From Flavipsychrobacter sp. (GTDB taxonomy: Bacteria; Bacteroidota; Bacteroidia; Chitinophagales; Chitinophagaceae): a DNA stretch of 64,000 bases. A model generated the notes under the pieces. The model saw nothing but the letters and a program-made list of their open reading frames with translations, had not been told where the DNA came from and ran no database searches. The stretch is from the NCBI GenBank assembly GCA_017849575.1, contig JAFIGV010000019.1, forward strand, positions 186,001 to 250,000. The letters run 5' to 3'. The stretch's first letter is position 1. Each line of letters begins with the position of its first letter. Of the stretch, positions 3,747 to 38,544 are shown piece by piece. The translations under genes and the position numbers were made by a program.

Positions 3747-6071
3747 ATGAAACAGATCATACAAAAGGCTTGTATGGTAGTGGCAGTGTTGCTGCTTGCA
3801 TGGTCGGGCAGGGCACAAACCAACATCACAGCCGCTGAATATTTTTTTGACAACGATCCAGGTTTTGGTAACGGCACCCAGGTGTCGGTAACACCTGCCG
3901 CCAACCTTTCGGGTCTGCTCTTCAATGCTAATGTGGCCGCGCTTTCTACAGGCATACACACACTGTATGTGCGTACAAAAGATGCCAACAACAAATGGAG
4001 CCTTACCTACAGCTACTACATAGCGAAAGTGCAGAACGTAGGGGCCAATCCTAATACAACAAGCAATATTTCGACCGCTGAATATTTTTTCGACAATGAT
4101 CCGGGGTATGGAAACGGATCGGCCATCGCTATTGCCGGTGGAAGCTCTAATATTTCCTCGCTGGCGTTCAACGCAGCCGTTGGCGCACTAAGCACGGGCA
4201 TCCACACGCTTTATGTCAGGAGCAAAGATGCCACAGGATGGAGCCAGACTACAAACTATTATTTTGCGAAAATCCAGGCTGTGCAGGGCAATCCGAATTC
4301 GATAAGTAATATCGTAAAGGCCGAATACTTTTTCGATACAGACCCGGGCTATGCCGGAGGCACCGATATTCCGCTTACACCGGGCACGGATATCTCCGGA
4401 CTGGTTTTCAATGCAACCGTGTCTTCACTAACCAATGGAGTGCACACGCTCTATGTGCGTACAAAGGATGCGCAGGGAAAATGGAGCATAACTAATGCAA
4501 TGTTATTTGCAAAAGTGCAGAGCCTGGCAGGAAATCCTAACACGGTTTCCAACATTACCAAGGCGGAGTATTTTTTCAACACAGACCCGGGCTATGGCAA
4601 TGGTGTCGATATACCACTTACTGCTGCAAACGACGTAAACGGACTCGTCGCCAACCTCAACATCGCTTCGCTGCCTACGGGTCTGCACACCTTGTATCTG
4701 CGTACAAAGGATGCACAAGGCAAGTGGAGTATTACCACCTGGTATCAGTTTTCCAGAATCCAGGGGCTAAGTCCTAATCCGGCCAGCCTGAGCAAAATCA
4801 ACAAGGCCGAGTACTTTTTCGATACCGACCCAGGTTTTGGCTTCGGCACCAACATTCCTATTCCTTCTCCGGCATACGACGTTAACGCTCTCACTTTTAA
4901 TGCAGACGTGTCGGCACTCAGCAGTGGCATGCATACTTTTTATGTACGCACCCGCGACTCTTCCGGTCAATGGAGTGTCACAAGGAACTTTTATTTCGTA
5001 AGAGTGCAGCCCCTTGCCACCAACCCACACACGACCAGCAACATCGTAAAGATGGAGTATTTCTATGATGCGGACCCGGGCTATGGCAACGGTACTGACG
5101 TGCCGGTAACCCCCGCGCTCGACATTTCCGGTATCACAATGAACGCCAATGTTACTGCGCTGACCAACGGTGTACATACTTTGTTTGTGCGTAGCAAGGA
5201 TGCTCAGGGCAAATGGAGTATTGTCAGTACGGTGAATTTTGCCAAAGTACAAGCTTTGGGTACAAACCCGCATAGCAAAAGCAACCTTACCCGCATTGAG
5301 TATTTTGTAGATACCGACCCCGGTTTCGGCAATGGTATTCCGCTTTCTTTCACTCAGGATACCAATGTGACGTCGCTTGCCTTTAATGTGGACATGACGG
5401 TGCTCGTCAATGGAGGACATACGCTCTATGTACGTTCGAAAGATGCTCAGGGTAAATGGGGCATTACGTATGTTCATCAGTTTAATGGCGGAACCGCTGC
5501 ATTGGCGGTAAAACTGATATCGTTCGATGCCATGCTACAACCGGAGAAAACTGTGAAACTTCAATGGCTAACCGCTGAAGAAAGAAATGTGGACCGTTAC
5601 GAAGTGGCAAGAAGCGCCGATGCCAGCAACTGGTTCACCATCGGAACGGTAGCGCCCAATGAACCCGGCAGTGACGGCAGGCATCATTATAGCCTTGACG
5701 ATGCAACGCCAGGCAGAGGTGTCATCTACTACAGGCTTACCGAAGTAGATCATAATGGTTCTACCACGCAGGCTCCTATTCGCTTTGTGACCATACGTGA
5801 CGATGAAACCACCTTTGCAAGTCTGTTCCCCAATCCTAATGATGGAAAACAGCTAACCATCAGTTCTTCTATTTTTAAGGACGGAGAAGTGCTGCTGACC
5901 ATTGTAGCCGCCGATGGAAGACTTGAGATGCAGCAGTTGATCAACAATAAAATGATCGATCAGTTTACCTTGAATAATCTTTCGCTGGCAGCCGGAAATT
6001 ACTTTGTGAATCTGGTAAGTAAGGAACATTCGGAGACACTGAAGCTACAGGTGACAGGCGATAGACTCTAA
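3747..6071 (+). CDS. T9SS-secreted protein with seven tandem EYFFDTDPGYGNG repeats
   Basis: The 774-residue protein has a signal peptide (residues 1-23, ending SGRAQ). Seven repeats of about 81 residues follow, from about residue 27 to 580, each reading (K/T)AEYFFDTDPGYGNG, then a strand pair, then HTLYVRTKDAQGKWS and an AKVQ...NPN linker. After these comes a fibronectin-like region (FDAMLQPEKTVKLQW...YYRLTEVDHNG) and a type A T9SS sorting domain (SLFPNPNDGKQLTISS to the end). The acidic DxDPGxGNG loop could bind calcium, but that is inference. The protein is expected to be exported through the outer membrane and attached to the surface. The repeats resemble many Bacteroidetes surface proteins, though I know no named domain for them. 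Confidence 0.88.
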   Translation: MKQIIQKACMVVAVLLLAWSGRAQTNITAAEYFFDNDPGFGNGTQVSVTPAANLSGLLFNANVAALSTGIHTLYVRTKDANNKWSLTYSYYIAKVQNVGANPNTTSNISTAEYFFDNDPGYGNGSAIAIAGGSSNISSLAFNAAVGALSTGIHTLYVRSKDATGWSQTTNYYFAKIQAVQGNPNSISNIVKAEYFFDTDPGYAGGTDIPLTPGTDISGLVFNATVSSLTNGVHTLYVRTKDAQGKWSITNAMLFAKVQSLAGNPNTVSNITKAEYFFNTDPGYGNGVDIPLTAANDVNGLVANLNIASLPTGLHTLYLRTKDAQGKWSITTWYQFSRIQGLSPNPASLSKINKAEYFFDTDPGFGFGTNIPIPSPAYDVNALTFNADVSALSSGMHTFYVRTRDSSGQWSVTRNFYFVRVQPLATNPHTTSNIVKMEYFYDADPGYGNGTDVPVTPALDISGITMNANVTALTNGVHTLFVRSKDAQGKWSIVSTVNFAKVQALGTNPHSKSNLTRIEYFVDTDPGFGNGIPLSFTQDTNVTSLAFNVDMTVLVNGGHTLYVRSKDAQGKWGITYVHQFNGGTAALAVKLISFDAMLQPEKTVKLQWLTAEERNVDRYEVARSADASNWFTIGTVAPNEPGSDGRHHYSLDDATPGRGVIYYRLTEVDHNGSTTQAPIRFVTIRDDETTFASLFPNPNDGKQLTISSSIFKDGEVLLTIVAADGRLEMQQLINNKMIDQFTLNNLSLAAGNYFVNLVSKEHSETLKLQVTGDRL
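3825..5490 (+). repeat. Seven in-frame tandem repeats of about 243 bp
   Basis: Each unit encodes one EYFFDxDPGxGNG...HTLYVRxKDAQGKWS module. Units start at intervals of about 81-82 codons and are diverged at the DNA level, so they are old duplications rather than a recent expansion. Unit 7 is the most divergent (EYFVDTDPGFGNGIP). Confidence 0.85.
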
Positions 6072-6382: not shown

Positions 6383-7234
6383 CTTACGTTGGTGTTTCCA
6401 GCGTTTGTGCGTCCACATCCAGTTTTCAGGTTGTTCGCAAATTTGACGCTCTACAAAACTGACATAGGCCTGTAGGATATCGCCGGCATGAGTCTGCGAT
6501 GCATCGTCGCAATATTTATAAAGATGAATACGATAAGAACCCCGTTTTATTTTTTTGATACCCGCAAACACAACCGCTGCCTTTGCGCGTCTTGCCATTT
6601 GCTCCGGTCCGCGAAAAAAAGGCGCTTCGCGATGCAGGAAAGGAATCCACTCAGCTACCTCGGGCGATGAAGGATTTTGATCTGCAGCAAGTGCAAGAAT
6701 GTATTGTGTTTCTTTCAGTCGTGCCAGTCCGCTTTTCAAGGCTTTCATCGACACCATCCATGCGCCGGATGCCGACCTTATCTTTTGCATCAACCGGTCG
6801 AAAGCATTGTTCGATAGCGGCAGGTACACACAGGCATATTGCTGCGGTGTATGGTATGGGCAGGCTACATTTGCCCATTCCCAGTTAAAGGTATGCCCCA
6901 GTATAGCGTAGGTGTTTTTGCCGTCGGTCGCCAATTGTTGAAACACTTCCCAGTTGCCGGTAAACCTGCGCGTCAATTGCTTTTTTGAAATAGAGAGCAG
7001 TTTCAGAGTCTCTATCCATTGGTCGCAAAAGTTTCGGTTGAATCGCTTTTGTATGGTCCGCAGTTCCGATGCTGGTTTTTCAGGAAAGGCATGTTTCAGA
7101 TTATCCCAAACAAGCGCTTTCCGGTACTTGAAAATGCCAAACAAAACTACATTCACGAAATCCGAAATCAGGTATAATACCGGCAACGGAAGCAGTGACA
7201 AAGGATACAACAAAATGTAGATCAGGTAGTACAC
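6374..7234 (-). CDS. LpxL/HtrB-like lysophospholipid (lipid A) acyltransferase
   Basis: The 286-residue protein has an N-terminal membrane anchor (MYYLIYILLYPLSLLPLPVL). It carries the HX4E acyltransferase motif with His114 and Glu119 (GHTFNWEW), then ALAADQNPSS and PFFRGPEQMARRAKAAVVF, which are conserved in the LpxL/HtrB/LABLAT family. These enzymes add a secondary acyl chain to lipid A or related lipids at the cytoplasmic face of the inner membrane. The length is typical for Bacteroidetes members. The ATG start gives the anchor at once. It stands alone, upstream of and in the same direction as the remnant at 6207-6382. Confidence 0.88.
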   Translation of the reverse strand: MYYLIYILLYPLSLLPLPVLYLISDFVNVVLFGIFKYRKALVWDNLKHAFPEKPASELRTIQKRFNRNFCDQWIETLKLLSISKKQLTRRFTGNWEVFQQLATDGKNTYAILGHTFNWEWANVACPYHTPQQYACVYLPLSNNAFDRLMQKIRSASGAWMVSMKALKSGLARLKETQYILALAADQNPSSPEVAEWIPFLHREAPFFRGPEQMARRAKAAVVFAGIKKIKRGSYRIHLYKYCDDASQTHAGDILQAYVSFVERQICEQPENWMWTHKRWKHQRKAE

Positions 7235-7261
7235 CGCCGCAAATTACATACTGTTTGCCGA

Positions 7262-7927
7262 CTACGATTTTTCCTCGTCATACTCCGAGGGTAATGTGGT
7301 AAGATCGTAGATCTCCTGTATGTCTTTCAGAATTTTTGTGAAGTTGATATTCAGGTCCTTCAAAATTCCTGTGTGCAGATCAAACACCCAGCCATGCACT
7401 ACCGGATACCCGTTGTGTACATACGATTTTTGAACAGCCGCCGTCTTGATGATATTCGTTGCCTGTTCCCGTACGTTCAGTTCTACCAGTCGGTCGTAGC
7501 GTTCATGTTCGTTCTCAATAGCCAGAAGTTCTTCATGGTGCAGACGATACACATCGCGTATGTTGCGAAGCCATGGGTTAAGCAAACCCATGTCTTTGGG
7601 TGTCATGGCTGCTTTTACACCACCGCAGTTGTAGTGGCCACAAACAATAATATGCTTCACATGCAGATGGCGAACGGCATAGTTGATCACCGACATTACG
7701 TTGAGGTCGGTGTTGTTTACAAGGTTGGCAACATTGCGATGCACAAACACCTCTCCGGGCTCCAGACCCATAATTTCATTGGCCGGCACACGACTGTCTG
7801 AGCACCCGATATAGAGGTAGTCGGGCGACTGATCGCGGGCCAGTTTTTCAAAGAAGTCCGGATCGCCTTTTGTCATTGAGGCAACCCATTGTTTGTTGTT
7901 TTCAAATATCTCTTCGTAAGTAGCCAT
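7262..7927 (-). CDS. can: Beta-class carbonic anhydrase
   Basis: It catalyses reversible CO2 hydration in the cytoplasm. Zinc ligands and catalytic pair are visible: Cys42-x-Asp44-x-Arg46 (GCSDSRV), His98 and Cys101 (CGHYNCGG). The family signature FVHRNVANLV is at 61-70. I chose the second ATG (7927, MATYEEIF) over the one at 7945 because it matches the family N-terminus and has an AG-rich stretch (agaaagaa) upstream; this gives 221 residues, the usual length. It is divergent from the FAH-family gene, sharing an 82-bp intergenic region. Confidence 0.95.
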   Translation of the reverse strand: MATYEEIFENNKQWVASMTKGDPDFFEKLARDQSPDYLYIGCSDSRVPANEIMGLEPGEVFVHRNVANLVNNTDLNVMSVINYAVRHLHVKHIIVCGHYNCGGVKAAMTPKDMGLLNPWLRNIRDVYRLHHEELLAIENEHERYDRLVELNVREQATNIIKTAAVQKSYVHNGYPVVHGWVFDLHTGILKDLNINFTKILKDIQEIYDLTTLPSEYDEEKS

Positions 7928-8009: not shown

Positions 8010-9026
8010 ATGAAACTCGTTACATATCGGAACAATGGCAAAGAACAGCTTGCCTTTTGCATCAATAATAATCTTTACGACTGCAATGTAGCCCATCCGG
8101 AGCTGCCGGGCACAATGATGGAATTGCTGGAAGGCTGGGAACAATATATTGCCCTGGCAAAATCAACTGAAGCAGATATCCGCTCGGGAAAAAATACAGT
8201 GGTACCCTACGGCACTCTGGATACAGAAGAGATTCTCGCGCCAGTACCCAGGCCCACGTCTTGCCGCGATGGTTATGCTTTTCGCCAGCACGTGGCAGCA
8301 GCCCGCCGCAACCGTAAGGTGGATATGATTGCCGAATTTGACCAGTATCCGATTTTTTATTTTACCAATCACAATGCTGTTCAGGGTCCTGGCGACATTC
8401 CGTGTATGCCCGATCATTTTCAAAAACTCGATTTTGAACTCGAAGCAGCCATCGTGATCTGTAAAAAAGGCAGAAACATTAAGGCGGAAGAAGCTGATGA
8501 CTACATAGGCGGATACATGATCATGAACGACATGAGCGCCCGCACCTTGCAGATGGAAGAGATGTTGCTGAACCTGGGTCCTGCAAAGGGCAAGGATTTT
8601 AGTACCGTGATCGGTCCCATGCTTGTGACGCCAGACGAGCTTGAGCCATTTAAAATTCCCGCCAAACCCGGACATGTAGGCAACAACTACAACCTGAAAA
8701 TGAAGTGCTGGGTAAACGGAATAGAAGTGAGCTCGGGCAATATGGGAGATATGGACTGGACCTTTGCAGAAATCGTAGAACGCTGTGCTTATGGCGCAGA
8801 TATTTTACCCGGCGATGTAATCGGCAGTGGCACGGTGGGCACCGGTTGTTTTCTGGAGCTCAATGGTACAGGGCTACTCAACGATCCTAACTATAAAGTG
8901 CAATGGCTGCAGCCCGGCGATGTGGTGGAAATGGAAATAGACGGATTGGGTAGGTTGAGCAATAAGATCGTTGCCGAAGACACTGACTGGAGCTTGTTGA
9001 AAAAGAAGAAGATGGCACATCAATAA
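8010..9026 (+). CDS. Fumarylacetoacetate hydrolase family protein
   Basis: The 338-residue protein has the FAH C-terminal catalytic fold. Metal ligands appear as Glu143-x-Glu145 (DFELEAAIVI) and Asp174 (MNDMSAR). DGYAFRQHV (His94 a candidate general base), GPMLVTPDEL and GDVIGSGTVGTGC complete the signature. The N-terminus MKLVTYRNNGKEQLA fits this subfamily, so I used the ATG at 8010 rather than the longer frame. Likely roles are fumarylacetoacetate cleavage in tyrosine degradation or a related acylpyruvate hydrolysis; fumarylacetoacetase itself is usually longer (about 420 residues) except in this bacterial subgroup. The following dehydrogenase gene starts 17 bp downstream, so the two are probably one operon. 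Confidence 0.88.
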   Translation: MKLVTYRNNGKEQLAFCINNNLYDCNVAHPELPGTMMELLEGWEQYIALAKSTEADIRSGKNTVVPYGTLDTEEILAPVPRPTSCRDGYAFRQHVAAARRNRKVDMIAEFDQYPIFYFTNHNAVQGPGDIPCMPDHFQKLDFELEAAIVICKKGRNIKAEEADDYIGGYMIMNDMSARTLQMEEMLLNLGPAKGKDFSTVIGPMLVTPDELEPFKIPAKPGHVGNNYNLKMKCWVNGIEVSSGNMGDMDWTFAEIVERCAYGADILPGDVIGSGTVGTGCFLELNGTGLLNDPNYKVQWLQPGDVVEMEIDGLGRLSNKIVAEDTDWSLLKKKKMAHQ

Positions 9027-9043
9027 AGCGAACGGTAACGAAG

Positions 9044-10195
9044 ATGAATAACGAGTCAAAAATTGGAATTGTAGGTTCCGGAGCCATGGGTGCCGGTATC
9101 GCTCAGGTAGCCGCTATGGCGGGTCACGCCGTAGTCGTTTATGACAACAACATGCAGGCTTTGCAGCGGGCGGAAAAAAGCCTCGAAGCTACCCTCAAAA
9201 AATTAGAAGATAAAGGAAAGATCGACAGCGCTGCGGAGATTTTTTCACGCTTCCGGTTCAGCGATCAGATGGCAGACTTTGCCGGTTGCGCACTCATCAT
9301 CGAAGCCATTGTCGAAAAGCTGGAAGTAAAAAAAGCAGTATTCGCCGAACTCGAAAAAATCGTCGATGAGGTTTGCGTGCTGGCTACTAACACGTCTTCA
9401 CTTTCTGTTACATCAATCGCTGCTGCTTGTCAAAAGCCAGATCGTGTGATCGGATTACATTTCTTCAATCCCGCTCCTTTGATGGCCTTGGTGGAAGTGA
9501 TACCTGCCTTGCAGACAAATGGCGCACGGACTGCAGAAATGAAAAGTCTGATGCTGCAATGGAAAAAGATTCCGGTACTCACTAAGGATACGCCAGGCTT
9601 TATTGTAAACCGTCTGGCGCGCCCATTTTACGGCGAGGCGCTTCGGATTTATGAAGAGGGTATCGCCGATATGGCCACCATAGATTGGGCTATGACTGAG
9701 CTTGGAGGTTTTCGTATGGGCCCGTTTACACTCATGGACTACATTGGTCATGACGTGAACTATGTAGTCACCGAAACTGTGTTTCAGTCGTTTTTCTTCG
9801 ATCCCCGCTACAAACCTTCTTTTTCGCAAAAGCGTTTGCTCGAAGCGGGCTGGCTGGGGCGAAAAAGTGGGCGTGGGTTTTATTCTTATCAGGAAGGTGC
9901 AGAGATGCCTCAGCCGGAAAAAAATACGGAGCTCGGGCATCGGATTTATAACCGTATCCTCGCGATGCTCATCAACGAAGCGGTGGATGCTCTGCACCTG
10001 AATATTGCCAGTGCCGAAGATCTGGATCTTGCCATGACGAAAGGTGTCAATTACCCGAAGGGGTTGCTGCAATGGTGCGAGGAAATCGGTGCGGCGAGTG
10101 TATTGCAGACACTCGATGCACTTTATAGCGATTACCACGAAGACCGTTACCGGGCAAGTGTGTTGCTCCGCAAAATGGCGGCAGGCAGGTCCTGA
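9044..10195 (+). CDS. 3-hydroxyacyl-CoA dehydrogenase (PaaH/Hbd type)
   Basis: The 383-residue protein oxidises (S)-3-hydroxyacyl-CoA with NAD. The Rossmann motif GIVGSGAMGAGIAQVAAMAGH starts at residue 8. The catalytic segment VIGLHFFNPAPLMALVEVIP (His-Phe-Phe-Asn-Pro) is in place, and TKDTPGFIVNRLARPFYGEALRIYEEG opens the first C-terminal 3HCDH domain. A second, shorter 3HCDH domain (NRILAMLINEAVDAL...GVNYPKGLLQW) makes it longer than simple 280-residue Hbd enzymes and closer to PaaH, the 3-hydroxyadipyl-CoA dehydrogenase of phenylacetate degradation. Pairing with the FAH-family gene suggests aromatic amino-acid catabolism, by inference. Confidence 0.92.
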   Translation: MNNESKIGIVGSGAMGAGIAQVAAMAGHAVVVYDNNMQALQRAEKSLEATLKKLEDKGKIDSAAEIFSRFRFSDQMADFAGCALIIEAIVEKLEVKKAVFAELEKIVDEVCVLATNTSSLSVTSIAAACQKPDRVIGLHFFNPAPLMALVEVIPALQTNGARTAEMKSLMLQWKKIPVLTKDTPGFIVNRLARPFYGEALRIYEEGIADMATIDWAMTELGGFRMGPFTLMDYIGHDVNYVVTETVFQSFFFDPRYKPSFSQKRLLEAGWLGRKSGRGFYSYQEGAEMPQPEKNTELGHRIYNRILAMLINEAVDALHLNIASAEDLDLAMTKGVNYPKGLLQWCEEIGAASVLQTLDALYSDYHEDRYRASVLLRKMAAGRS

Positions 10196-34073: not shown

Positions 34074-34616
34074 CTATAAACCGAAATGGAAACCGATGCT
34101 GATTGTTATAGGCAAAGGTTCACTGTCAAATTTCACGCTCGGGTTGTTTTTCAACTTATCAAAATCTTTCTGGTATTGATCGCTGCGAAACGGATAATAG
34201 ACTCCGAAAAACAGCTTATTGGGTGCCCTGCCCACTTTCCAATCTAGCCCCACGCCTGCACTCGGACCATAGTAGGTCTTATTGTACTCAGACGCCCCAG
34301 CCACCACAATTACTGCATTGTAGCCATACATAGCTTGTATGGTAGGGCTGAGTTTCTTCTTGGGCAATGCCTTAAACGAAAGACCGCCATTGAAGCCCAG
34401 ACCTTTGAAATTAAATCCTGCACCGGCAAATATGCCAAGGTAAGGAATGGGTACCGCCTCCACTTTAAAGCCAAGCCCTCCGTAGTCTAAACCGGTACCT
34501 AGACCAAAGAATACATTACGCTCCCGTTCATCGTCTCTATACCGCTGCGCCGAGGCAGTATGCAATCCGCAAAAAAGCAGGATGCTGACGATTACTGTAA
34601 ATTTTATTGAATTCAT
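34074..34616 (-). CDS. Secreted beta-barrel-like protein, copy 1
   Basis: The 180-residue protein has a signal peptide (MNSIKFTVIVSILLFCGLHTASA). Short glycine-rich strands follow (FFGLGTGLDYGGLGFKVEAV; GFNFKGLGFNGGLSFK; SISIGFHFGL-type C-terminus) in the alternating pattern of a small outer-membrane beta-barrel. The protein is closely related along its length to the one encoded at 41930-42472 (shared YGYNAVIVV, YGPSxGxGLDWKVGRAPNKLFF, YPFRSxQYQKD). No function is known. The ending in an aromatic-plus-Leu strand fits an outer-membrane insertion signal. Confidence 0.8.
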   Translation of the reverse strand: MNSIKFTVIVSILLFCGLHTASAQRYRDDERERNVFFGLGTGLDYGGLGFKVEAVPIPYLGIFAGAGFNFKGLGFNGGLSFKALPKKKLSPTIQAMYGYNAVIVVAGASEYNKTYYGPSAGVGLDWKVGRAPNKLFFGVYYPFRSDQYQKDFDKLKNNPSVKFDSEPLPITISIGFHFGL

Positions 34617-35274: not shown

Positions 35275-35652
35275 TTAAGGATTCATCCACCAATTGAAGC
35301 GCCCAAAAGGAAAATCTGCAATTGACATCAGCCACTGATAGGTTTGGAGGTCAGCACTACCTGGCCAATAGTCTTGCCAACCGGTTAAATCAACCCCTTT
35401 TCTCTGAAAATAGTCATGTCCCATATTAGAAGCATTCCGTTCATACCAAGCATTCTCATCATGTTCATCTCGATTAAAGAGACTATTTATACCCCCCCTG
35501 GTATAACCCTTAAAGCCATACCTCCTGCTTTGCAGGTAATGCCCGTATTCATGCATAAGGTATTCTGAAGCGGGTTTCAATTTACCATATTTGTCATAAG
35601 CTATACCTTCATACTTGAGAACCCTTATGTAGTTTCCTAAATCCTGTCCCCG
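35275..35652 (-). pseudogene. Truncated RHS-type toxin tip with HExxH zincin motif
   Basis: On the minus strand the frame reads GQDLGNYIRVLKYEGIAYD then SEYLMHEYGHYLQSRRYGFKG and ends RFNWWMNP. HEYGH is a zinc-metallopeptidase HExxH motif. The sequence looks like the C-terminal tip of a polymorphic toxin, but nothing of the toxin body is left. The upstream side is cut at a REP-like hairpin (35653-35679), beyond which a transposase gene lies in a different frame. The open frame extends upstream to 35772 only by reading through that element. Without a start codon of its own it is probably not expressed. Confidence 0.6.
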
Positions 35653-35679
35653 TTCGGCGTAGCTTGCAGCTACGTCGCA
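35653..35679 (+). repeat. REP-like hairpin A
   Basis: TTCGGCGTAGC-TTGCA-GCTACGTCGCA: CGTAGC/GCTACG stem with conserved TTCGG head and TCGCA foot. It lies one base beyond the 3' end of the transposase frame. Confidence 0.75.
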
Positions 35680-35680
35680 A

Positions 35681-36106
35681 TTAAACCAACAACTCCAAAT
35701 CAACAAGTCCTTTTGTGCCGGTAAAATATTCCTTAGCGCTACTATAAAGATAATCCTCCTCCCTTTCCACAATTCCCGATCTAACTGGATTCTGATGGAT
35801 GTAATTCAATTTCTGTTGAAAAAATTTTTCACTGCTTAATTCTATTGCATGGTTCTCATGCGTCCATACCTGGTAACGTTCGTTGCGTTCGTGTTGCGCT
35901 GCTGCCTCACCAAATATTCTTAACAGCCATTCCCGTCTGCTTTCCGGCTCTCTTTCTATCGTAGCAATTATTTCCTTACTCGTGTGCCTTTTGAAATCTC
36001 GAACGATGGCGGACAAATTGCCTGCTTGTGATGATGCTATCAAATGAATATGGTTGCTCATAATTACATAAGCATGAAGCCTAAGACTCAGTTCGGCGTA
36101 GTCTCC
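35681..36106 (-). pseudogene. REP-associated tyrosine transposase (RAYT, Y1), 5'-truncated
   Basis: The frame contains LRLHAYVIMSNHIHLIASS (HxH/HUH metal motif) and KLNYIHQNPVRSGIV, which holds the catalytic-type Tyr of Y1/RAYT transposases, with DYLYSSAKEYF after it. An ORF with ATG starts at 36061 (126 residues), but homology clearly begins earlier, and the frame continues upstream (DYAELSLRLHAYVI) to a TAG inside REP-like hairpin B. The first 40-60 residues of a normal RAYT are missing. These enzymes mobilise REP hairpins. This copy is probably inactive. Confidence 0.8.
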
Positions 36107-36120
36107 GGACTACGTCGCAG
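36092..36120 (+). repeat. REP-like hairpin B
   Basis: TTCGGCGTAGTC-TCCG-GACTACGTCGCAG has the same head, stem and foot as hairpin A and cuts the 5' end of the transposase frame. Confidence 0.8.
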
Positions 36121-36226
36121 CGGCAATTGTTCTCCGAACAATAATATTACATGTTTAACCACCCTCTAAAGTTAGCCACTGCATTTGTTAGAAACCTTGA
36201 TTTGCAGTCGGGAGACTGCTATCCAC

Positions 36227-36274
36227 TGCGACGTAGTCAGCTACACACAAGCCTTACCTTCAGACTACGCCGAA
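36227..36274 (-). repeat. REP-like hairpin C, inverted, long loop
   Basis: TGCGACGTAGTC (36227-36238) and GACTACGCCGAA (36263-36274) are the foot and head of the same element in opposite orientation, with a 24-base loop. A degenerate fourth copy, with head CTACGCCGAA, ends at 37116. Confidence 0.7.
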
Positions 36275-36322
36275 CAGGCAATATCAAATACTTCATAACA
36301 TTACAAATAATTTAATTTAAAT

Positions 36323-36775
36323 TTATTTTTTTCGCTTTGCTAGTTTTTCTACGGCTTGTTGAAAATCCTTTGGATAAAGTGATATTTCAATGCTTAAATT
36401 TAAATTTCCAGCCAGTTTCAATAATTCGTTAGGTATAAACGAAGACTGCGAGAGTACGTTTTCTTTATCAATAGTCATTTCTATACCAAATCTTAATGTA
36501 GCATATTCGATTTCCTTTGTTAATCCAACATGTTTAAGCTTAGATTTATTACTCTTTAGAAACTTCACGGCATCTTTTATCTGAGTTTCAAACTCAGTAA
36601 AATCAGCATCACTTACTTCAATAGATAAAGCTGAGTACATCATTTTTGCCCCATTAGGTCGATTAGGTGATTTAGCTTCCCCTATGTACCTTTTCTTGTG
36701 TGGGCTTAGTTTGCTTTTCTCAACAAACGAATCGATGTCTAATTCTTTTCCGATAATTGACAATACACAACTCAT
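36323..36775 (-). CDS. DUF4279-like protein, candidate immunity gene
   Basis: The 150-residue protein starts MSCVLSIIGKELDIDSFVEKSKLSPHK and continues SIEVSDADFTEFETQIKDAVKFLKSNKSKLKHVG and FGIEMTIDKENVLSQSSFIPNELLKLAGNLNLSIEISLY. This pattern of an N-terminal strand, SxxVSDADF and a final LxLSIEISLYP strand resembles DUF4279-type small proteins often found as orphan immunity proteins. It has no signal peptide and acts in the cytoplasm. It is AT-rich. A remnant frame overlaps its start from upstream. The family assignment is tentative. Confidence 0.6.
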   Translation of the reverse strand: MSCVLSIIGKELDIDSFVEKSKLSPHKKRYIGEAKSPNRPNGAKMMYSALSIEVSDADFTEFETQIKDAVKFLKSNKSKLKHVGLTKEIEYATLRFGIEMTIDKENVLSQSSFIPNELLKLAGNLNLSIEISLYPKDFQQAVEKLAKRKK

Positions 36776-36917: not shown

Positions 36918-37200
36918 CTAGTTGAGTCACCCAGGACGGAAGAAAATTGCCGGCTTCTTCCTTTCGAATGCCAGTTGAAAACCGGCTGTTCATATATGAC
37001 ACGAGAGCGCTGCGCTAACTCTCGCGCCAGAGAGTGTATGTATAGCCCCAAGTGTTCCGTTGCCCCCTCGCGACCTAGTTAACTACCTAGAGTGCTTGGC
37101 TTTAAACTACGCCGAATCGGCACTGTAGATCGCATCTTGCTTTCTAGTCTTGAGTCTCAAGACCAAGAAGACACAGAAACAACTCCCTTTTTCGTAATCA
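36918..37200. other. Gene-free spacer with decayed sequence
   Basis: No gene is supported here. The stretch is GC-richer than the flanking cassette genes, contains a CTCTCGCGCCAGAGAG-like imperfect palindrome near 37020 and ends in a degenerate REP-like head (37106-37116). On the minus strand an open frame (SLARELAQRSRVIYEQPVF) has no start codon. Confidence 0.4.
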
Positions 37201-38167: not shown

Positions 38168-38544
38168 GGATTAATTTTTTATTCCAGTAGCATCCCACTG
38201 ACGCGAGATTTCCGAAAGATGTCCCGTGTCCTCTTTATATCGTCTTACGCGATTCTCCTGAAAGGGACTCGCGCACATCAGGGTAATAGCAGTTTGGTTC
38301 CATCATCTGTCTGCTTGCAATTTAACTACGGACTAACTGGAAATACTTCCAACAAAATTTTCGAACTTTCATGGTTAAATTTAGGGAATTGCGCCCCAAT
38401 GCGGGCGAGTCCTTCTCTCCTCATAACATAAAGATAGTCACCCCTTTATTTCGGCTATAAATATTAAGGCAAATCAAAAATATTTCAGAATAACTTTTGC
38501 ACAACTTCACTTTTTGTGAACTTTCGCTACTTTTACATCATGAT
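38168..38544. other. Gene-free spacer ahead of the HigBA locus
   Basis: I see no supported gene. The plus-strand open frame at 38159-38431 has no coding character. On the minus strand a 33-codon frame (MRREGLARIGAQFPKFNHE) has no family resemblance. A GACTCGCCCG motif here (minus strand, 38403-38412) also occurs on the plus strand at 34832-34841, near the other end of the cassette region. Confidence 0.4.

What the first reader, a model, noticed from the sequence alone, without database searches (positions are those of the whole stretch)
35653..36274. RAYT transposase truncated at a REP hairpin and bracketed by REP copies
The transposase frame ends one base from hairpin A and is cut at its 5' end inside hairpin B, with inverted hairpin C 107 bases further out. 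All share a TTCGGCGTAG head and a TACGTCGCA foot. RAYTs are known to act on REPs, but a RAYT fragment lying exactly between two of them looks like a mobilised or gene-converted REP-RAYT-REP unit that also interrupted the toxin tip.
Basis: partly seen in the sequence, partly recalled or inferred. Interest (0 to 1): 0.6.

Follow-up and report, generated by a model that had tools for sequence, protein, structure and literature searches.

The report
Decayed REP-RAYT pieces beside toxin-like genes
A broken copy of a hairpin-recognising transposase gene (RAYT) lies between small DNA hairpins left by two different mobile elements in a variable, toxin-like gene island; the remnant itself is ordinary, but relatives show such elements sitting recurrently beside RHS toxin genes.

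Summary
Hairpins A, B and C are one REP family, and the frame is the C-terminal two thirds of a REP-associated tyrosine transposase (RAYT, TnpAY1 subclass 2.6-like). The reading as one 'REP-RAYT-REP unit' is only partly right. A is the fragment's own 3' REP. B is not its 5' REP: C and B are the ends of a separate 187-nt REP doublet (REPIN/MITE-like) that recurs at G000:C8:65817-66003 (87%, ending at the outer heads). It resembles the ends of another RAYT lineage, whose intact copy (C14) carries C-type DNA 5' and B-type DNA 3'. Gene conversion between A and B is not supported. The family is small (about 19 copies). No full-length copy of the fragment's lineage was found, only N-terminal pieces that stop at A-type hairpins. 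The island also holds a fourth, degenerate hairpin and two REPs of a third RAYT lineage; a same-genus genome has identical units of that lineage between toxin-like cassettes beside the same flanking gene. Side results: whole RAYT units occur as exact copies with different flanks in two genomes, and RAYTs lie near RHS cores more often than expected (7 of 65 against 0.5).

The parts
35653..35679 (+). Hairpin A, 3' REP of the RAYT fragment
   Evidence: A-type hairpins follow RAYT N-terminal pieces at C8:66560 and C8:67188
35681..36088 (-). RAYT fragment, C-terminal two thirds, HUH and Tyr motifs kept; the open frame runs on to 36109
   Evidence: NCBIfam REP_Tyr_transpos 2e-22; alignment; homology limit
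36089..36275 (-). C-B doublet, 187-nt REPIN/MITE-like unit
   Evidence: second copy at G000:C8:65817-66003, 87%
36092..36119 (+). Hairpin B, one end of the C-B doublet
   Evidence: 96% over 55 nt to the 3' block of the intact C14 RAYT
36227..36274 (-). Hairpin C, other end of the C-B doublet
   Evidence: 97% over 75 nt to the 5' block of the intact C14 RAYT
36939..37030 (-). E, 5' REP and leader of a third-lineage RAYT unit, gene lost
   Evidence: 90% over 69 nt to the G001 unit, 80% over 92 nt to C12
37068..37118 (-). D, degenerate hairpin of the A/B/C family
   Evidence: model match, 50.9 bits; fold not better than shuffles
38194..38238 (-). F, 3' REP of a third-lineage RAYT unit, gene lost
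   Evidence: 84% to the ends of the G001 and C12 units
36323..36775 (-). DUF4279 gene next to C, possible immunity gene (memory, not tested)
   Evidence: Pfam PF14106, 5.5e-6
35275..35650 (-). Tip-like frame with HEYGH that starts at the outer edge of A
   Evidence: no family match; one weak stand-alone homologue
34074..34616 (-). Flanking gene P0003, anchor for synteny with G001

Best explanation
The locus is a chimeric remnant of two REP-RAYT lineages in a variable, toxin/immunity-like island. Step 1 (inferred): a REP-RAYT-REP unit of the fragment's lineage sat here; A is its 3' REP. Step 2 (that C-B is a repeated unit is shown by its second copy; its insertion here is inferred): the 187-nt C-B doublet, with ends like those of the C14-type RAYT unit, inserted in or next to that RAYT gene, probably moved in trans by the intact C14-type RAYT cutting and rejoining single-stranded DNA at the hairpins. 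Step 3 (inferred): the N-terminal third of the RAYT was lost in a deletion that ends at the hairpin edge, by transposase cutting or replication slippage; two other truncated RAYT copies in this genome likewise stop at the foot of an A-type hairpin. The remnant makes no working RAYT; its REPs may still be substrates.
For: C-B recurs as a whole at C8:65817-66003, the match ending at the outer heads, with unrelated flanks. The intact C14 RAYT carries the C-type block 5' and the B-type block 3'. RAYT homology abuts B without spacer. A-type hairpins directly follow RAYT N-terminal pieces at C8:66449-66591 and C8:67001-67218. The same-genus G002 has an intact RAYT (68% to the fragment) with no hairpin inside the gene. 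Three other RAYTs in the genome are full length.
Against: The order of events is not observed. The missing RAYT N-terminus is not on the far side of C, so simple insertion does not suffice and a second event is needed. No strain with the earlier state is held. The middle of C-B could not be traced to a RAYT gene.
Confidence: 0.72

Rival explanations
1. One reading: one REP-RAYT-REP unit, mobilised or gene-converted, that inserted here and broke the toxin tip.
For: The fragment does lie between two like hairpins, and in relatives whole RAYT units appear as exact copies with different flanks.
Against: B belongs to the C-B doublet. A and B each match a different lineage. The gene's N-terminus is absent on both sides.
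Confidence: 0.1
2. Random decay: unrelated deletions in a non-essential island left the pieces where they are, and the match of breakpoints to hairpins is coincidence.
For: D, E and F are degenerate, and the island is variable between species.
Against: Three truncated RAYT pieces in this genome stop within a few bases of a hairpin edge.
Confidence: 0.1
3. Cassette exchange: homologous recombination between REP/RAYT copies brought a new toxin/immunity-like cassette in and left the chimeric junction.
For: In G001 and G060, RHS-related cassettes lie between direct repeats of RAYT units (100% over 999 bp; 92% over 709 bp). Third-lineage REPs E and F flank a gene pair in the window.
Against: No reciprocal product or strain comparison is held; the B-RAYT junction shares no lineage.
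Confidence: 0.08

Closest known systems
TnpAY1 subclass 2.6 / RAYT group 5 (Quentin et al. 2018, PMC6006769)
   Same: Bacteroidota, NH[LIV]H and YIH[QN]NP motifs, atypical hairpins on both sides of the gene.
   Different: The copy here is truncated and chimeric. [quoted passage not shown]
REPIN / BIME (REP doublets; PMC3116915, PMC6006769)
   Same: C-B is two REPs in inverted orientation with a short spacer, repeated in the genome without a transposase gene.
   Different: Only two C-B copies are seen, 187 nt long; published REPINs come in large populations.
GTAG- and CGTC-tagged REPs (Di Nocera et al. 2013, PMC3733652)
   Same: Short palindromes, GTAG-type ones found beside RAYT genes.
   Different: Here GTAG and CGTC lie inside the stem, not as the unpaired tag at the foot.
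IS200/IS605 family (IS608, ISDra2)
   Same: HUH/Tyr single-strand transposase with hairpins at both ends of the unit.
   Different: The proteins score under the IS200 model's cut-off and over the RAYT model's (full-length copies).

Membership tests
REP-associated tyrosine transposase (RAYT, subclass 2.6) | HUH motif and catalytic tyrosine in the RAYT sequence context | tested here: met
   NHIH and YIHQNP kept; REP_Tyr_transpos 79.5 bits for the fragment, just under the cut-off of 80, and 88-102 bits for the full-length relatives
REP-associated tyrosine transposase (RAYT, subclass 2.6) | Gene flanked by cognate hairpins | tested here: inconclusive
   3' hairpin A is cognate; the 5' neighbour B belongs to another element
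REP-associated tyrosine transposase (RAYT, subclass 2.6) | Intact, potentially active gene | tested here: not met
   N-terminal third missing: a remnant, not a working member
REP-associated tyrosine transposase (RAYT, subclass 2.6) | Cleaves and rejoins its hairpins | not testable with these tools
   needs purified protein and single-stranded substrates
REPIN / REP doublet (C-B) | Two inverted REPs with a spacer, repeated as a unit at unrelated sites | tested here: met
   two copies, unrelated flanks, ends at the outer heads
REPIN / REP doublet (C-B) | High copy number, dispersed between genes | tested here: not met
   two doublets and about 19 hairpins in a few clusters; draft assembly may hide more
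GTAG-tagged REP | Unpaired GTAG at the foot of the stem | tested here: not met
   GTAG is inside the folded stem
RHS toxin tip (35275-35650) | C-terminal domain attached to, or displaced from, an RHS core | tested here: inconclusive
   The only RHS core over the cut-off in the genome is on C12; no family match and one weak stand-alone homologue

The most novel reading that the evidence does not exclude
In Bacteroidota, group-5 RAYT units move as whole units and sit at the joints of RHS tip-immunity cassettes, where their repeated copies or their strand transfer drive gain, loss and shuffling of toxin cassettes. The window is a fossil of such an array.
Probability: 0.18. Interest if true: 0.7.

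Novelty: new member of a known kind. Interest (0 to 1): 0.38.

Why it matters
The remnant corrects a natural misreading: hairpins that bracket a RAYT fragment need not be its own. It gives an internal record of how REP doublets may form, since several truncated RAYT copies end at hairpin edges. The side results make two questions testable: whether subclass 2.6 RAYT units transpose as units, contrary to the usual description of REPtrons, and whether they take part in shuffling RHS cassettes.

Tried and rejected
Gene conversion between A and B: rejected, because each matches its own lineage. Empty site in relatives: the syntenic island in G001 has other cassettes and other RAYT units, so no orthologous empty site is available. 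Viral scan for the hairpin: 6 exact matches, about what I estimate by chance for 17 fixed bases in a collection of that size; not pursued. Viral scan for the tip-like frame: nothing. Rfam: nothing. PHROGs: weak transposase match only. Papers holding both Rhs and RAYT: none in the held library. The homologue of the tip-like frame in G045 stands alone, not on an RHS gene.

Full report
What is there. Hairpins A (35653-35679), B (36092-36119) and C (36227-36274, minus) are exactly as described, far above chance (0.01 expected), and fold as single strands. The frame on the minus strand is the C-terminal part of a REP-associated tyrosine transposase: the HUH motif (NHIH) and the catalytic tyrosine (YIHQNP) are kept, and NCBIfam REP_Tyr_transpos matches at 2e-22, 79.5 bits against a cut-off of 80. 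Its stop is one base from A. RAYT homology begins at 36088, directly at the outer edge of B.

The hairpins belong to two lineages. In the intact RAYT of contig C14 (191 aa), a C-type block lies 5' and a B-type block 3' of the gene (97% over 75 nt and 96% over 55 nt to the window). In the window, C and B come as a pair without that gene. The whole C-B stretch, 187 nt, recurs at C8:65817-66003 with 87% identity; the alignment ends at the outer heads and the flanks are unrelated. C-B is therefore best read as a mobile REP doublet, not as the fragment's flank. A belongs to the fragment: A-type hairpins follow N-terminal RAYT pieces (about 17 and 45 codons) at C8:66449-66591 and C8:67001-67218. The intact RAYT of same-genus genome G002 matches the window's C-terminal piece at 68% and reads, by eye, much like the N-terminal pieces.

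Copy number. The exact short form occurs only twice in the 3.6-Mb genome. A covariance model built from 15 copies finds 18 places, and a degenerate one at C8:502420 is known from the DNA search; most lie at RAYTs or RAYT pieces. Contigs C5 and C12 start inside such repeats, so the draft may hide more. Full-length RAYTs of three other lineages exist (C14 twice, C12 once); none of the fragment's lineage was found.

How it arose. Shown: a C-B doublet present twice; a RAYT fragment with its own 3' REP; a junction without spacer. Inferred: C-B inserted in or by the RAYT, and the N-terminal third was lost to a deletion ending at the hairpin. Two other RAYT copies in this genome end at the foot of an A-type hairpin, which points to hairpin-edge deletion by transposase cutting or replication slippage. 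RAYTs of other groups cut single-stranded DNA on both sides of REPs and rejoin it (PMC8266576); nothing of the kind was tested here for this subclass.

The surroundings. On the minus strand the order is: F (third-lineage 3' REP, 38238-38194), two ORFs (37963-37201), D, E (third-lineage 5' REP, 37030-36939), a DUF4279 gene, C-B, the RAYT fragment, A, a tip-like frame with HEYGH, a small ORF, then the flanking gene P0003. In same-genus genome G001 the homologue of P0003 is preceded by an RHS gene and cassettes separated by two 999-bp third-lineage RAYT units that are 100% identical; identity ends at the outer hairpin ends and the flanks differ. G038 shows the same with a 752-bp unit (99.9%). Such exact copies suggest that these units can move as units, while Quentin et al. 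2018 (PMC6006769) state that REPtrons do not appear to. This is sequence evidence only; recombination is not excluded.

RHS association. In 61 genomes, 7 of 65 RAYTs (5 genomes) lie within 5 kb of an RHS core; 0.48 are expected from densities. The Poisson P of 8e-7 overstates the case because copies and RHS genes cluster; counted by genome it is 1e-4. This was noticed before it was tested, and the first cases are included in the count. In 80 further loci, five have an RHS core within 4 kb, all 5' of the RAYT on the same strand; none has one downstream. One C12 case in the window's genome is convergent instead. DDE_Tnp_1 transposases gave 0 of 35 near the listed RHS cores; the numbers are too small to be conclusive alone, and the RHS list was cut at about 150 rows. 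No paper in the held library has both terms. The plain reading is that variable islands tolerate insertions; a role in cassette shuffling is open.

Toxin tip. That the tip-like frame starts at the outer edge of A is seen directly. That it is an RHS tip is not shown: no family match, one weak stand-alone homologue, and the genome's only RHS core over the cut-off lies elsewhere. Its flanks were not joined.

Verdict. Observation confirmed; interpretation partly supported; a degraded, chimeric member of a known kind, with a wider pattern worth testing.

Noticed in passing
L069 (G001:C185) 6874-7872 and 8903-9901; L160 (G038:C4) 3779-4530 and 8551-9302: Whole RAYT units in exact or near-exact copies (100% over 999 bp; 99.9% over 752 bp) whose identity ends at the outer hairpin ends, with different flanks.
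   Followed up: partly
L069, L073, L074, L075, L085, L101, L110, L115, L118: RAYT genes close to an RHS core or a displaced tip, on the same strand and mostly downstream of it, in several Bacteroidota.
   Followed up: partly
L061 4448-5221 (G000:C8:66447-67220): Two RAYT N-terminal pieces (about 17 and 45 codons), each running straight into the foot of an A-type hairpin, separated by a small membrane-protein ORF.
   Followed up: partly
G000:C5:1-130 and G000:C12:1-130: Both contigs start with tandem C-type hairpins, so assembly breaks at these repeats and copy counts are lower bounds.
   Followed up: no
L017 1430-2622 (G000:C12): The genome's only RHS core over the cut-off is a fragment lying between a C-type hairpin and an intact RAYT in convergent orientation.
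   Followed up: partly
L110 2664-4590: A toxin-antitoxin-like gene pair lies between two RAYT copies (89% identical), next to an RHS gene.
   Followed up: no
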